From: Lachnospiraceae bacterium
GTDB lineage: Bacteria > Bacillota > Clostridia > Lachnospirales > Lachnospiraceae
Assembly (NCBI GenBank): GCA_029227035.1
Contig: JAQXZD010000023.1
Location: 1 to 41,543 of the forward strand
Length of the DNA stretch: 41,543 nucleotides
Direction: 5' to 3'
Shown here in pieces: positions 21,724 through 31,559 of the stretch. Under the pieces are notes generated by a model. The model ran no database searches, was not told the DNA's origin, and saw nothing but the letters and a program-made list of their open reading frames with translations. Every line of letters starts with the position of its first letter. Within the stretch, counting starts at the first letter, position 1. The position numbers and the translations under genes are program-made.

Positions 21724-22950
21724 TTATCTTTTGGAATTTTTCAGGAAATCCGGAATATTAATTTCTACCGGCTTTATCGTACTCTCCGGCTGCTTCGGCT
21801 TCTGAATACCGGAATATGTAGATGCCGATGGAGTCGGGGTTGGAGTTGTCGGTCTGGTGGTACCTGCTCCGGTAAAGCTGTTACCTGCCGTTGTAGCATG
21901 GTTAACGATTCCGGATACGGAAGAAGCAGTCCTTGTTGCCGTCTGATTCGGATATACCATACGGTTACCGATACCGGAAGTCTTTGTCTGCTTTGCCTGT
22001 ACATTCTCAAGACCGGTTGCAATCACAGTGATAATCGCTTCATCCGTCATTGTCTCATCATACTTTGCACCAAAGATAATATTGGCATCCTCTCCGGCAA
22101 GATCCTGTACATAAGATGCTGCGTCATTGGCATCCATCAGGGAGATATCTCCCGAAATATTGATAATGACATGGGTTGCGCCATTGATGGTGGTCTCCAG
22201 AAGCGGAGATGCAACTGCAAGCTTAACTGCCTCAATCGCTTTCTCATCGCCCTTTGCACTACCGATACCGATATGTGCCATACCCTTGTCCTTCATAACT
22301 GTCTGAACATCCGCAAAATCCAGATTAATCAGAGCCGGCAGATTAATCAGGTCTGTAATTCCCTGTACCGCCTGCTGTAATACCTCGTCCGCCTTCTTCA
22401 GTGCATCCGGCATGGATGTGCGTCTGTCTACAATCTCAAGAAGCTTGTCATTCGGAATCACAATCAGTGTATCCACATTTTCCTTCAGTCTCTCGATTCC
22501 TGATACCGCATTAATCATACGCTTCTTTGCTTCAAATTTAAACGGCTTTGTAACGACACCTACCGTTAAAATGCCCTGTTCTTTCGCAATCTTTGCTACG
22601 ACCGGCGCTGCACCTGTTCCTGTTCCGCCGCCCATACCACAGGTAACGAATACCATATCCGCTCCCTTTACTGCCGCGGACAGTTCCTCTGTGTTCTCCT
22701 CCGCAGCCTTCTCTCCAATCTCCGGCTGTGCTCCGGCTCCAAGTCCTTTTGTCAGTTTCTCGCCGATCTGTATCAATGTGGGAGCTTTGCAAAGCTGTAA
22801 TGCCTGCTTATCCGTATTTACTCCGATAAATTCCACTCCACCTATATTTTCATCAATCATGCGGTTCACAGCATTATTACCAGCGCCGCCAACACCGATT
22901 ACGATAATTTTGGCACTCGTATCTGTCTCTGTTGTTCGTATCTCCAGCAT
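21724..22950 (-). CDS. ftsZ: Cell division protein FtsZ
   Basis: The tubulin-like GTPase that forms the cytokinetic ring, 408 residues. The nucleotide-binding signature [10 protein letters not shown] is at 107-116, preceded by [13 protein letters not shown] near the N-terminus; the T7 loop [11 protein letters not shown] is intact. After the globular core there is a Thr/Pro/Ser-rich linker and the conserved C-terminal peptide [13 protein letters not shown], which binds FtsA/SepF-type anchors. GAGGAGG precedes the start. It has its own promoter within the dcw cluster. spoIIGA follows 97 bp or more downstream with Spo0A control. Confidence 0.97.
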
Positions 22951-23028
22951 GGTGTTTCCTCCTCTTTTCCAAAAGCCCTATGCCACTGTGAAACCCAAAA
23001 TAACGTTCCATATGTGCTCATATACTCT

Positions 23029-26394: not shown

Positions 26395-28134
26395 TTATTC
26401 CCCCAATTCAAGGTAGGGCAGAATGTTTTCAAAGATTTCCTTTGCTACCGGCGCCGCAATCGTTCCTCCGTAGTATACACCGGTGGGATTTCGGATGATA
26501 ACAAGCACCAGCACTTTCGGATCATCTGCCGGGGCAAAACCCAGAAATGAAGAAATATACCGATTTGCAGAACGTGGAAGTGTCTGCGAGGTGGCAGTCT
26601 TTCCTCCAATCTGATAGCCTTCGATATACGCCTTATTGCCGCCTCCCTCCGATACGACTTTTTCCAGGAGATAACGCATTTTTTCCGAGGTATCCGCACT
26701 GCAGATCGCCCCGGTTGTCTCATAGCTGAACTTTTGGATGGAATTTCCGTCTTCATCCTCAACCTGTATTCCCAAATGCGGCGTTACCCGGCTTCCCCCA
26801 TTTATAATAGAAGAAACGGTAGCCGCAAGCTGAATGGGCGTAATCTGAAAGGACTGCCCGAAAGATACGGTAGCAAGCTCCACCAGTCCGATATTCTCGC
26901 GCTTATGCATAATCGTTGCAGCTTCTCCCGGCAGGTCAATACCGGTCTTATTCAGCAGTCCAAACTGCTCAAAATAATCATAAAACCGGTCTGCACCGAG
27001 GCGAAGTCCCACGTTGATAAACACCGGATTACAGGAATTCTCAATTCCCTCCACAAAGCTTTCCGCTCCGTGTCCGGTAGTCTTATGACAACGGATTCTC
27101 CTGTCCTCCACAACAATATAACCCGGACAATGAAATCTGTCCTCTAACGAGACAACCCCTTCCTCCAACGCTGCCGCCGCCGTAATCACCTTAAAGGTTG
27201 AGCCCGGCTCGTAGGTATCGTTGATGCAATGGTTTCGCCACATCTTGTTCCGGTAATCTTCTTCCTCATCCGTCCCCGCGTACTGCGCATACTCCCCTGT
27301 CAGGGTAAAAGGATCGTTCAGATTAAACTCCGGATAATCTACCATGGCAAGCATCTCTCCGTTGGACGGATTCATAACAAGAATACTCACGGAATCCGCC
27401 TCTTTTTGAATATAGGCTTTCTCTGCCGCCTGCATGGCAAACTTCTGGATATTAACATCGATGGAAGTGCGCAGATTGCAGCCGGCAGCCGGTTCTATCC
27501 GCTCCTCACCGATATTGTCAACCTCCACCCCTCTTGCATCCGTCGTGGTCAGGATGGTGCCGTCCGTCCCCTTCAGATATTCATCATAAACGCTCTCTAT
27601 CCCGATAATTCCCTGATTATCGCCTCCCGTAAATCCAAGCACCTTTGCACACAGGTCACCATAGGGATACTCTCTTTTGTAATCCTCATCCACTTTAACT
27701 CCGGCATAGCCATAGGCAAGAATCCGGTTTCCCGTCTCCTTATCCACGTTACTCTTTATCCGCTCAATGGACGAATATTTTTCAACCCGCTTTCTTACCT
27801 TCTCCTCCGGCAGGCTCAGTTCCTTCGACAGCATCTCAATGACCGCCTCCGGCTCCGTAATCTGATTATGTATCACGGAGATGGTACAGACGGATTTGTT
27901 GGATGCCAGAACCACACCGTTTACATCCAGTATTTTTCCCCGTGCCGCTTTAATCTGCCGCTCTCTCTGCTGCAAATCCGATGCCAGACCTGAGTAATAA
28001 TTTCCGCGGAATATCATAAGATATACAAGTCTTCCGCACAGGACTCCCGCGCATGCCAGCACTGCAAAAAAGATGACGCATATCTTTTTTCGGATGTAGG
28101 TCTTGTTGCGTTCCACAGGACTTTCCCCATCCAT
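26395..28134 (-). CDS. Class B penicillin-binding protein (PBP2/SpoVD-like) with KTA motif
   Basis: A 579-residue transpeptidase with one N-terminal membrane helix (about 18-40), a dimerisation domain (RGKILDVNGVVLASN) and a penicillin-binding domain. The active serine is in STFK (312-315) and SCN is at 367-369. The third motif is KTA (512-514, in GGKTATSQTLPRS) instead of the usual KTG. No PASTA domain follows. It makes cross-links in septal or spore peptidoglycan, probably with FtsW. It is the second of two adjacent class B PBPs and follows the first after 50 bp. The ribosome site is weak (AAGAGAG). Whether it is the vegetative FtsI or the spore SpoVD cannot be decided from sequence alone. 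Confidence 0.9.
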   Translation of the reverse strand: MDGESPVERNKTYIRKKICVIFFAVLACAGVLCGRLVYLMIFRGNYYSGLASDLQQRERQIKAARGKILDVNGVVLASNKSVCTISVIHNQITEPEAVIEMLSKELSLPEEKVRKRVEKYSSIERIKSNVDKETGNRILAYGYAGVKVDEDYKREYPYGDLCAKVLGFTGGDNQGIIGIESVYDEYLKGTDGTILTTTDARGVEVDNIGEERIEPAAGCNLRTSIDVNIQKFAMQAAEKAYIQKEADSVSILVMNPSNGEMLAMVDYPEFNLNDPFTLTGEYAQYAGTDEEEDYRNKMWRNHCINDTYEPGSTFKVITAAAALEEGVVSLEDRFHCPGYIVVEDRRIRCHKTTGHGAESFVEGIENSCNPVFINVGLRLGADRFYDYFEQFGLLNKTGIDLPGEAATIMHKRENIGLVELATVSFGQSFQITPIQLAATVSSIINGGSRVTPHLGIQVEDEDGNSIQKFSYETTGAICSADTSEKMRYLLEKVVSEGGGNKAYIEGYQIGGKTATSQTLPRSANRYISSFLGFAPADDPKVLVLVIIRNPTGVYYGGTIAAPVAKEIFENILPYLELGE

Positions 28135-28184
28135 GCACTCTCTTTCTTATACTATATGAATCCACCAATTCCAAAAGAACCCTT

Positions 28185-30116
28185 TTATTCGCGCTTTTTT
28201 GTCCCATCATTTTTCCCGGTATACTGCGCGTTTTCTCCGGTGACATCCAGCCCCTTATTGCGTCCGGTCTTTTTCTCATCCGGATAAATGTTCATATACG
28301 GAAGCACTTCCTCAAGAATCTCTCTGGAAATATTCTGTGCGAAATAACTGTGTGCCTGATCTGCGGCATTTGGCTCGTCCACCACGCAGTAAATGACTAC
28401 CTGCGGATCATCATACGGTGCAAAGCCCATAAATGACACAAGATATTTACCCTGTTTTCGCGGCTGTTTTTCTCCGGTTCCGGTCTTTCCGCCCATGGAA
28501 TAGCCGTCTACCTTTGCCGTTCCTCCGGTTCCCTTGCTCACCACATCCTGCAGATAATCCTTCACCTTCTTGCTGGTGCGCTCCGAAACGGTCTGCTTCA
28601 CCACCTTCGGCTCTATCGTGGAAATAGTATTGCCGGAGGCGTCAGTAATCTTTGTAACAATGTGCGGCTGATAATAATATCCGCCATTGATCAGGGAGCA
28701 GAATCCACTGGCCATCTGAATCATGGTACAGTTGTAATTCTGTCCGAATGCGTTCGTCGCAAGATCGATCGCCTTCATATCGTCCAGCGAATAGACCAGT
28801 CCCGATGTATTTGCTTCTCCCGGCAGATCGATTCCCGTTTTCTGTCCGAATCCGAACACGGACTGGTATTCGGAAAAATTCTCCTTTCCGATCTTATAAG
28901 TCATCTGCATGATTGCATCGTTACAGGAGTCCATCAGCGTCGTGCGGATTGTCTCCACTCCGTGTCCCTGTCTTGCCACACAGCTTACCGTCTGTCCGTT
29001 AATCTTCTCATGTCCGTCGCAGTCAAAGGTCATCTTGTCGTTAATCGTTCCCGTATCCAGACCGCATGCCACGGTAAACGGCTTCTGCACGGAACCCGGT
29101 TCATAGGTGGCAGTCACACAGTAATTCTGCCAGAGCCCGTTCAACGCGTTCATCTGATCGTCTTCGGACATCTTCGCAACCTTTTTCTTGGAATAAAGCC
29201 CACTCAGATCTCTCGGATTGTTCAGATCAAATCCCGGATAATCCGCCATGGCAAGCACCTCTCCGGAATTCGGATCCATCACAACCACGGCCGTGTTGAC
29301 ACTGCCCTTGCCTTTATAATAGTTGTTTTTGTATTTCTTATTAAATTCTGCGATTTTTTCTTCCACAATGGACTGGATGTTCGCATCCAGAGAACATACC
29401 AGTGTGTTTCCATCCTGTGCCTGAATTACAGTCTTTTCAAAGGCACTGTCCGAATTCAGATATCCATACTCCCTTCCATTGACTCCGTTTAACACATCAT
29501 TGTAATAATTCTCCAGGCCGATGGTTCCTACATCCCCGGAAGACGTAAAGCCAATGACGGAAGCCGCAAGCGAATCATACGGATAGTTCCTCTTGTACTC
29601 CTTTTCAAACCATACACCATTGATGTTCGGATGAACCTTGTTTTTCTTCTCGTCCACTTCGTTCTGCAGTTCCACAAAAGGCTGTACCTCGTTATACGGA
29701 ATCTTCTTTGCCAGAATGATGTAACGGTTATCCTTCTCTTCCTTTGCATACTTTTCCAGCTCTGCCCGATCCAGCTCCGGGAAACAGGATACCAGTGCAT
29801 CAATCGTCGGCTGGATATACTCTTCCTTGCTGGTCATGACACTGCAGTCCAAAATAACATTATAAACAGCCACACTCGTAGCAAGCACGGTACCGTTCCG
29901 ATCTACAATGTCACCTCTCTGGTACGGAATAATCTTGCTGTCGTATGACTGCATGGATAATACTTTTTTCTCATATTTGTCTCCGTCTGTATGCTCGATA
30001 TACATCAGTCTTCCGATCAGAACACACAGAAGGAACAGAATTCCGGAGAAGAGCACCATCAGCTTGGCTCTCATTCTCCTTGTAAATTTTTTGACAGGTT
30101 TCTTTCTTCTTGCCAC
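28185..30116 (-). CDS. Class B penicillin-binding protein (FtsI/PBP2-like)
   Basis: A 643-residue transpeptidase. A basic start (MARRKKPVKKFTRRMRAK) precedes one membrane helix (about 19-40). The dimerisation region RGDIVDRNGTVLATS follows, then the catalytic domain with SVQK (342-345), SCN (397-399) and KTGT (544-547), all canonical. The C-terminus is a charged tail without PASTA repeats. The start is GTG at 30116, with TAGGAG six bases before it. That TAG is the stop codon ending the full ftsL frame, so ftsL and this gene would be tightly coupled if ftsL were read to its end. Confidence 0.92.
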   Translation of the reverse strand: MARRKKPVKKFTRRMRAKLMVLFSGILFLLCVLIGRLMYIEHTDGDKYEKKVLSMQSYDSKIIPYQRGDIVDRNGTVLATSVAVYNVILDCSVMTSKEEYIQPTIDALVSCFPELDRAELEKYAKEEKDNRYIILAKKIPYNEVQPFVELQNEVDEKKNKVHPNINGVWFEKEYKRNYPYDSLAASVIGFTSSGDVGTIGLENYYNDVLNGVNGREYGYLNSDSAFEKTVIQAQDGNTLVCSLDANIQSIVEEKIAEFNKKYKNNYYKGKGSVNTAVVVMDPNSGEVLAMADYPGFDLNNPRDLSGLYSKKKVAKMSEDDQMNALNGLWQNYCVTATYEPGSVQKPFTVACGLDTGTINDKMTFDCDGHEKINGQTVSCVARQGHGVETIRTTLMDSCNDAIMQMTYKIGKENFSEYQSVFGFGQKTGIDLPGEANTSGLVYSLDDMKAIDLATNAFGQNYNCTMIQMASGFCSLINGGYYYQPHIVTKITDASGNTISTIEPKVVKQTVSERTSKKVKDYLQDVVSKGTGGTAKVDGYSMGGKTGTGEKQPRKQGKYLVSFMGFAPYDDPQVVIYCVVDEPNAADQAHSYFAQNISREILEEVLPYMNIYPDEKKTGRNKGLDVTGENAQYTGKNDGTKKRE

Positions 30117-30125
30117 CGCTTACTC

Positions 30126-30272
30126 CTATTGTTTTGGTATATCACCATATTGATCCATAAAATTGCTGTTGTCAATAGAATAGTATACCACTTGATCCTC
30201 TGTTGGGTAAGACATTCCAAGCTTATTTATTGCAACATCTTTGATATGCTGCAAATCAACGGAAGTTGTAAT
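30126..30272 (-). other. In-frame continuation of ftsL after the amber codon (C-terminal part)
   Basis: Directly after TAG at 30275-30273 the same frame stays open for 48 codons, to the TAG at 30128-30126. It encodes ITTSVDLQHIKDVAINKLGM, then SYPTEDQVVYYSIDNSNF and MDQYGDIPKQ. The VDLxxIxxxAxxxLGM...Q..Y pattern is the usual C-terminal region of FtsL/septum-formation-initiator proteins in Clostridia. No ribosome site or usual start codon at its beginning suggests independent translation. Confidence 0.8.
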
Positions 30273-30596
30273 CTAATTGTAACGCTCATCATTGTCTGCC
30301 CGCATGTCAATCACCTTGCTCTCCAGCGCTGCCACTCTTCGCATATGATGTGTCATCTGGGACTGAACCCGGATAAACATAACTGCCGCAAATGCCAGCA
30401 TAAGCACACAAACTGTAAGGAATGCCACATACCCCATGCTCATCTCCATCGCTCTCTGTCTGTTTCTTCTCGCCGCATTTCTGCGATTCTTCCGACGTCT
30501 TGCCTCCTCGATTTCCCTTCTTGTATTAGGCGTCTGACGAACCGGAGCCTCCAGCTCCCGCACTGTATTTCCATTCACGTAATAATTTTTCGTCAT
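30273..30596 (-). CDS. ftsL: FtsL-like divisome protein, cut short by in-frame TAG
   Basis: A bitopic division protein (FtsL/septum formation initiator family), encoded at the usual place between rsmH and the PBP genes. The 107 residues before the stop hold a long basic cytoplasmic part (about 1-53, RRKNRRNAARRNRQRAM), one membrane helix (about 55-75) and the start of the external coiled coil (VAALESKVIDMRADNDERYN). An intact frame would give 156 codons including the internal TAG. In known systems the part outside the membrane pairs with DivIC/FtsB and binds DivIB, so the truncated form lacks much of the interaction surface. The ribosome site is weak. The gene may be broken, read through, or affected by a sequence error. 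Confidence 0.8.
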   Translation of the reverse strand: MTKNYYVNGNTVRELEAPVRQTPNTRREIEEARRRKNRRNAARRNRQRAMEMSMGYVAFLTVCVLMLAFAAVMFIRVQSQMTHHMRRVAALESKVIDMRADNDERYN

Positions 30597-30617: not shown

Positions 30618-31559
30618 TTATTTTTCCTCTCGCTCAAAGACCCTCAACTTCGCACTTTTTGAACGACTGTTTTCGCTAATCTCCTCTTCAGTCGGCAGAA
30701 TCGGTTTTCTCACTGCCACATGTCCTTTGGACTTTTTGCCGCACACACATACCGGAAAATCCGGTGGGCAGGTGCACGGGTTCTCATTCTTCTTGAAATT
30801 CGACTTAACAATTCTGTCTTCCAGTGAATGAAATGTAATCACGCAGATTCTTCCACCGTCATTTAACATTTCAATCATCTCGTCCAGATGTTCCTGCAGA
30901 ACTTCCAATTCATGATTTAATTCAATCCGTATTGCCTGATAAGTCCGCTTGGAAGGATGTCCTCCGGTTGCCTGTACCTTCATGGGAATGGCCCCCCGGA
31001 TAACCGCATTCAGTTCTCCGGTTGTCTCGATCGGTTTCTCTTTCCTCGCCCGTACAATATGTTTTGCAATATTCTTGGCGAAACGATCCTCTCCGTAGTC
31101 CCGGATAATCCGGTACAGTTCCATCTCACTGTATTCATTGACAATCTCCCTTGCGGTAAGACTCTGTCTCTTATCCATCCGCATGTCCAGAGGTGCATCC
31201 TCCACCCGGTAGGTAAATCCCCGCTCCGGCGTGTCAAGCTGATACGAAGATACTCCCAGATCCAGAAGAATTCCATCCACCTTCTGGATGCCAAGCTCTT
31301 CCAGCACCTCTTTCATTTGTGCATAATTGCTTCGTACAATTGTCACTTTATCCTGATAATCTTTTAATCTCTCCGTTGCTGCCGCAATTGCGCATTCATC
31401 CTGATCAATTCCAATCAGTCTTCCGGTTGTCAGCCGCCTGCATATTTCAAGGGAATGCCCGCCGCCCCCAAGGGTGCCGTCCACATAGATTCCATCCGGT
31501 CGGATATGAAGCTGTTCAATTGTCTCCTGCAGCAATACCGAAGTATGCTTAAATTCCAT
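30618..31559 (-). CDS. rsmH: 16S rRNA (cytosine(1402)-N4)-methyltransferase
   Basis: RsmH (MraW), an S-adenosylmethionine-dependent enzyme that methylates C1402 of 16S rRNA in the decoding centre. The 313 residues show the opening [13 protein letters not shown], the SAM site [29 protein letters not shown] with the following [15 protein letters not shown], and [13 protein letters not shown] near the end, with a Cys-rich loop [21 protein letters not shown] precedes the start. It follows mraZ after 30 bp in the standard dcw order. Confidence 0.97.

What the first reader, a model, noticed from the sequence alone, without database searches (positions are those of the whole stretch)
30126..30596. 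Essential divisome gene ftsL is interrupted by an in-frame amber codon
The FtsL-like frame stops at TAG (30275-30273, codon 108), in the middle of the external coiled coil. The same frame then stays open for 48 codons with typical FtsL C-terminal sequence (VDLQHIKDVAINKLGM, then DQVVYYS). It ends at a TAG (30128-30126) that merges with the ribosome site of the next PBP gene. One base change (for example CAG or AAG to TAG) would explain it. FtsL is essential in studied Firmicutes, so truncation, suppression, readthrough and sequence error are all open. TAG is used as a normal stop by several genes here, so it is not reassigned.
Basis: partly seen in the sequence, partly recalled or inferred. 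Interest (0 to 1): 0.82.

Follow-up and report, generated by a model that had tools for sequence, protein, structure and literature searches.

The report
Lone stop codon in ftsL gene
A cell-division gene in a draft gut-bacterium genome carries one stray stop codon not found in the relatives examined; the sequence after the stop is still well conserved, so this is most likely an assembly error or a rare recent mutation rather than a new mechanism.

Summary
The minus-strand ftsL frame (30596-30126) has an in-frame TAG at 30275-30273 (codon 108), then 48 open codons to the usual end. The genome is a draft of 121 contigs, estimated 85.6% complete, Agathobacter/Roseburia-like. All 107 other loci with a match are open across the site; of 61 genus genomes with a match, only this one has a mid-gene stop. 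The tail still looks selected: pN 0.10 against pS 0.36 versus the nearest relative, 2 of 48 residues private. No second ftsL, no CUA anticodon among 45 tRNAs and no PylS over cut-off were found; release factor 1 is intact. TAG ends 68 of 244 clear genes in 375 kb; of 32 doubly coding stops there, ftsL's alone lacks a gene start behind it. In S. aureus, FtsL without its last 23 residues fails to complement (PMC11988411); here 49 are lost. Best reading: a consensus error or a very young rare allele. Reads or a second genome of the species would decide; neither was available.

The parts
30273..30596 (-). ftsL, N-terminal 107 codons and the in-frame TAG: cytoplasmic basic part, membrane helix (about residues 54-76), first part of the outer coiled coil
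   Evidence: membrane helix and coil read from the sequence, not predicted by a tool
30273..30275 (-). in-frame TAG (codon 108) that interrupts ftsL
   Evidence: absent from the 107 other loci with a match
30126..30272 (-). ftsL, 48 open codons after the TAG and the usual terminal TAG; holds the conserved C-terminal part of FtsL
   Evidence: (TIGR02209 positions 63-84, 14 bits, below its cut-off)
30114..30128 (-). terminal TAG of ftsL overlapping the AGGAG ribosome site and GTG start of the next gene
28185..30116 (-). penicillin-binding protein (PBP dimerisation and transpeptidase domains), intact
26395..28134 (-). second penicillin-binding protein (SpoVD/FtsI-like), intact
30618..31559 (-). 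gene upstream of ftsL, named rsmH (mraW) from recall of the sequence and the cluster; open frame
   Evidence: the name comes from no family search

Best explanation
The TAG is an isolated single-codon defect in the assembled sequence of an otherwise normal ftsL. It is either a consensus or assembly error of a draft (probably metagenome-derived) genome, or a very young, rare nonsense allele that the assembly picked up. Most living cells of this species probably make full-length FtsL of about 156 residues in the ordinary way: a bitopic protein whose outer coiled coil works with DivIC and DivIB to help switch on the septal PBP. Shown: the stop, its absence in the relatives examined, conservation of the tail, and absence of special decoding parts in the sequence held. 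Inferred: that no cell line lives long with it, that the genome is metagenome-derived, and the function, which is taken from studied FtsL.
For: All 107 non-focal loci with a match are open across the site. Of 61 genus genomes with a match, the only other main match with a flagged stop (G061) has it at the normal end. The tail is not decaying: against G030, pN 0.103 and pS 0.361, and 2 of 48 private residues against 16 of 109 columns in the head. It is the only such stop found in 375 kb, and the other window genes compared with relatives show no clear interruption. No second ftsL match in the sequence held. No CUA anticodon in 45 of 45 tRNA places, no PylS over cut-off, RF1 present, no unusual RNA fold after the TAG (z -0.07). 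In S. aureus, FtsL without its last 23 residues does not complement, with about 1% survival (PMC11988411, section read), so the 107-residue product should not work. The genome is a draft: 121 contigs, 85.6% complete, 2.59% contamination. A public record of another relative also shows a broken ftsL frame (L065), which I take to be a record error.
Against: The defect is isolated: the 375 kb scan finds no other mid-gene stop of this kind, so the assembly is not visibly error-ridden, although that scan does not see frameshifts. The site is not in a homopolymer of four or more. The codon before the stop is also a private change, at a position that is Lys in 27 of 28 relatives printed, which could mean real local change. 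The head has more private residues (16) than that of any of the seven relatives compared (2-13), many of them just before the stop, which could mean real lineage-specific evolution. Against G030 the tail's dN/dS (about 0.23) is higher than the head's (about 0.10), so a slight recent relaxation is not excluded. No reads and no second genome of the species were available.
Confidence: 0.68

Rival explanations
1. Real and fixed in this lineage: a 107-residue FtsL that still works, perhaps because partner proteins compensate, with the tail only recently lost.
For: The frame up to the stop is intact with its membrane helix. The coiled coil before the stop has several private residues. DivIC is present and uninterrupted. 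The tail's dN/dS against G030 is higher than the head's.
Against: The tail still shows purifying selection and 2 of 48 private residues, so the loss cannot be old. No genus member with a match has a shortened FtsL of this kind. In S. aureus FtsL without its last 23 residues fails to complement (PMC11988411); here 49 are lost, including the LGM stretch that is invariant in the 12 sequences.
Confidence: 0.12
2. The stop is partly read through or suppressed (near-cognate tRNA, a suppressor tRNA not in the assembly, or low-fidelity ribosomes), giving reduced amounts of full-length FtsL, possibly as a dosage control.
For: The tail is conserved. FtsL of B. subtilis is described as an unstable protein and the target of several regulatory mechanisms (PMC6126333, passages), so its amount may matter. 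In-frame stops in genes under purifying selection are reported across bacteria and read as frequent readthrough (PMC7918605, abstract, passages and section 2.1). The genome is incomplete and no Trp or Ala tRNA was seen, so a suppressor could be missing.
Against: No CUA anticodon in 45 of 45 tRNA places. No PylS over cut-off. RF1 present. TAG is the terminator of 68 of 244 genes. No stable structure after the stop. The stop is not shared by any relative examined, as an established regulatory one should be. The same paper holds that most such stops are short-lived and assumes that most have no functional recoding.
Confidence: 0.13
3. Split gene: the tail is translated separately by re-initiation and acts as its own small protein.
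For: The tail frame is open and conserved.
Against: No ribosome-site-like motif with an in-frame start within 25 codons after the stop. The tail alone has no membrane helix and would stay inside the cell (read from the sequence).
Confidence: 0.02
4. Overlooked lineage-wide recoding of TAG as a sense codon.
For: None beyond the single open tail.
Against: TAG ends 68 of 244 clear genes, and the scan of 375 kb found no other TAG between two strongly coding stretches without a gene start behind it; RF1 present.
Confidence: 0.005

Closest known systems
FtsL of Firmicutes (B. subtilis, S. aureus)
   Same: Position before the septal PBP gene, short bitopic protein with basic cytoplasmic part and outer coiled coil, conserved C-terminal part (general features from recall and PMC6126333/PMC11988411 passages)
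   Different: Here the frame carries an in-frame TAG that removes 49 residues; the relatives examined are uninterrupted at this site
Isolated in-frame stop codons in bacterial genes under purifying selection (Belinky et al. 2021, PMC7918605)
   Same: Single stop in a gene whose sequence after the stop still shows purifying selection
   Different: To limit artefacts that study focused on stops in orthologous genes of two or more species, shown at the same position; this one is seen in a single assembly, so it would probably not pass their filter
Amber suppression / pyrrolysine decoding
   Same: An in-frame UAG with a conserved continuation
   Different: No CUA tRNA found, no PylS over cut-off, no recurrence in the genes scanned or in relatives

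Membership tests
FtsL | Sequence relatedness over the whole length to FtsL-position genes of relatives | tested here: met
   Profile of 12 relatives matches positions 1-156 at E 2.3e-82
FtsL | Curated FtsL model above cut-off | tested here: not met
   The halves were searched apart: TIGR02209 14 bits (cut-off 42.45) on the tail, NF049847 12 bits (cut-off 50) on the head. Intact relatives were not run as a control
FtsL | Place in the division/cell-wall cluster directly before the PBP gene | tested here: met
   PBP at 28185-30116; loci of relatives fetched through that PBP have the FtsL frame ending just before it
FtsL | Intact outer coiled coil with the conserved C-terminal part | tested here: not met
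   TAG at codon 108
Nonsense suppression by a CUA tRNA | tRNA with CUA anticodon | tested here: inconclusive
   None in 45 of 45 tRNA places, but the genome is 85.6% complete and no Trp or Ala tRNA was seen
Pyrrolysine decoding | PylS | tested here: not met
   Only 25 and 19.5 bits against a cut-off of 178.15
Programmed stop readthrough | Stop conserved in relatives | tested here: not met
   0 of 107 other loci and 0 of 60 other genus genomes with a match have a stop at or near this place
Programmed stop readthrough | Stimulatory RNA structure 3' of the stop | tested here: not met
   Fold of 123 nt from the stop: z-score -0.07; pseudoknots not tested
Programmed stop readthrough | Full-length product in cells | not testable with these tools
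   Needs mass spectrometry or ribosome profiling

The most novel reading that the evidence does not exclude
A natural amber stop has become fixed in the essential ftsL of this species, and cells live on a low level of UAG readthrough or on a suppressor tRNA not in the assembly, so that division is throttled by translation accuracy.
Probability: 0.06. Interest if true: 0.7.

Novelty: new member of a known kind. Interest (0 to 1): 0.2.

Why it matters
If the stop were real and fixed, it would show that an essential divisome regulator can be run through an amber codon or without its C-terminal part, against deletion data from S. aureus. In the likelier case it is a caution: a single consensus codon in one draft genome can look like the loss of an essential gene.

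Tried and rejected
Homologues that normally end at this point: none among those examined. Second ftsL copy: no second match in the sequence held, which is incomplete. Other flagged stops in relatives: those in G061, G214, G403 and G126 are the normal terminal stop; weak second matches in G044 and G031 that also hold stops (E 4.6e-5 and 9.1e-4) lie elsewhere in those genomes, which have intact ftsL matches, and were not followed. Chimeric join at the stop: the tail is closer to G030/G038/G046 at synonymous sites than the head (pS 0.36/0.36/0.32 against 0.67-0.71), though not to G002, G044 or G053. Identity along the locus (overlapping 90-base windows) climbs from 0.67-0.69 before the stop to 0.89 at 30210-30121 against G030, the highest printed for that relative, then drops to 0.66; other windows vary nearly as much, and I saw no clear breakpoint at the TAG, but overlapping windows would blur one. 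Recoding of TAG: counts speak against it. RNA signal after the stop: none. Phages and viral contigs for a second copy of the locus: nothing. Papers: the search for 'ftsL' with 'nonsense mutation' gave 6 papers, of which only listing and abstract starts were seen, none evidently on this; two searches on nonsense errors in draft genomes gave none or, in the 12 of 15 listed, nothing apt apart from PMC7918605. An early scan with a low threshold gave 86 candidates that I sorted only by eye. In one search my start-site filter was too lax, because it also accepted starts before the stop, and it hid ftsL; one search is the corrected version. In one search, overlapping hits were merged regardless of strand into 28 places. 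The stops it flags outside ftsL were judged by their positions to come from antisense shadow frames or gene ends, for example the + strand hit 22253-22972 opposite the 408-residue gene at 21724-22950; they were not each tested separately.

Full report
What is there. On the minus strand the frame 30596-30126 reads 107 codons, TAG at 30275-30273, 48 codons, and a terminal TAG at 30128-30126. The terminal TAG overlaps the AGGAG of the next gene, which starts with GTG at 30116. The gene lies between a gene I recognise as rsmH (30618-31559; name from recall) and two penicillin-binding-protein genes (28185-30116 and 26395-28134; Pfam transpeptidase and dimerisation domains). The window is contig 23 of a 2.40 Mb genome in 121 contigs, estimated 85.62% complete and 2.59% contaminated. 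The best-matching records at this locus carry names such as Agathobacter sp., Roseburia faecis and uncultured Lachnospiraceae. That it is a metagenome-derived genome is an inference from these figures.

It is ftsL. Curated FtsL models score below their cut-offs on the two halves, but the place in the cluster and a profile of 12 relatives (E 2.3e-82 over positions 1-156) leave little doubt. Residue numbers for the membrane helix are read by eye.

Relatives are intact here. With the stop written as X, 109 of 111 loci held at that time gave a match; two of these are the window's own, and in all 107 others the frame is open across the site to the usual end (91 distinct C-terminal sequences; some loci are the same genome reached by two searches). 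In one of them, L065, the frame is broken further upstream. L103, cut off upstream, and L031, a locus brought in by a 52-base DNA match elsewhere, gave no match. In the genus search 61 of 62 genomes have a match; among the main matches, stops are flagged in this genome and in G061, and G061's is the terminal stop. In a family search, 384 of 397 genomes match; only part of the rows is listed, and among those listed G214, G403 and G126 are flagged besides this genome. All three are terminal stops. The unlisted rows were not examined.

The tail is not decaying. Against the closest relative (G030), the 48 tail codons have pN 0.103 and pS 0.361 (dN/dS about 0.23), and the head pN 0.148 and pS 0.672 (about 0.10, with synonymous sites near saturation). 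Against seven relatives, 2 of 48 tail residues are private, against 16 of 109 columns in the head; the seven relatives themselves have 0-8 private in the tail and 2-13 in the head. Several of the private head residues, including the codon just before the stop, lie in the last 26 positions. So if the stop is real it is much younger than the split from these relatives, or the tail is still made. With 48 codons these ratios are rough, and the tail's ratio is above the head's, so a slight recent relaxation is not excluded.

Special decoding has no support. None of 45 tRNA places has a CUA anticodon, but tRNAs for Trp and Ala were not seen either, so the set is incomplete. PylS gives only sub-threshold hits. 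RF1 is present over its cut-off. In the window plus 20 further stretches (374,617 bases), 68 of 244 clear genes end in TAG, 128 in TAA and 48 in TGA. In the same DNA, 32 stops have strongly coding sequence of the same frame on both sides; 31 are followed by a ribosome-site-like motif and in-frame start (read as ordinary gene junctions) and only the ftsL TAG is not. The score threshold was set after the ftsL score was known, the coding model was trained on the same DNA, and the scan does not see frameshifts. The RNA after the TAG folds no better than shuffles.

Would a truncated FtsL work? In S. [quoted passage not shown] Here 49 residues are lost. FtsL of B. subtilis carries an 'E' in the divisome table of PMC6126333, whose legend I did not see, and titles in its reference list call the gene essential (passages). 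DivIC is present and uninterrupted in this genome, and FtsZ, MurD and the FtsW- and DivIB-like genes of the window are open (names from recall), so the division machinery is not decaying in general.

Conclusion. A lone, private, very young or spurious stop in an otherwise selected and probably essential gene of one draft genome is best explained by a consensus error or a rare allele. Isolated in-frame stops in genes under purifying selection are a described class in bacteria; the authors expected a substantial fraction of raw cases to be artefacts and focused on stops in orthologous genes of two or more species (PMC7918605, abstract, passages and section 2.1). This case would probably not pass that filter. 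Readthrough or a tolerated truncation is not excluded, because neither reads nor a second genome of the species could be examined.

Noticed in passing
L065 (Eubacterium plexicaudatum ASF492, NZ_AQFT02000001.1), locus 1800-2420: The ftsL of this public record changes reading frame near the membrane helix, as if by a small insertion or deletion; probably a sequence error in the record. A second example of a broken ftsL in a public assembly.
   Followed up: partly
window 30126-30272: The ftsL tail is closer to G030/G038/G046 at synonymous sites (pS 0.32-0.36) than the head (0.67-0.71), but not to G002, G044 or G053; possibly extra constraint near the next gene's ribosome site, or old recombination.
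   Followed up: partly
window 30276-30350: The coiled coil just before the stop has a cluster of residues private to this genome among the eight compared, at spacings that could follow the coil's heptads.
   Followed up: no
G000 contigs C46, C65, C101: Three tRNA-Glu genes with anticodon CTC on three contigs, two of them close to contig ends; may be true copies or repeat-edge assembly.
   Followed up: no
window 26395-30116: Two related penicillin-binding-protein genes in tandem after ftsL, both also matched in the five relatives compared.
   Followed up: no
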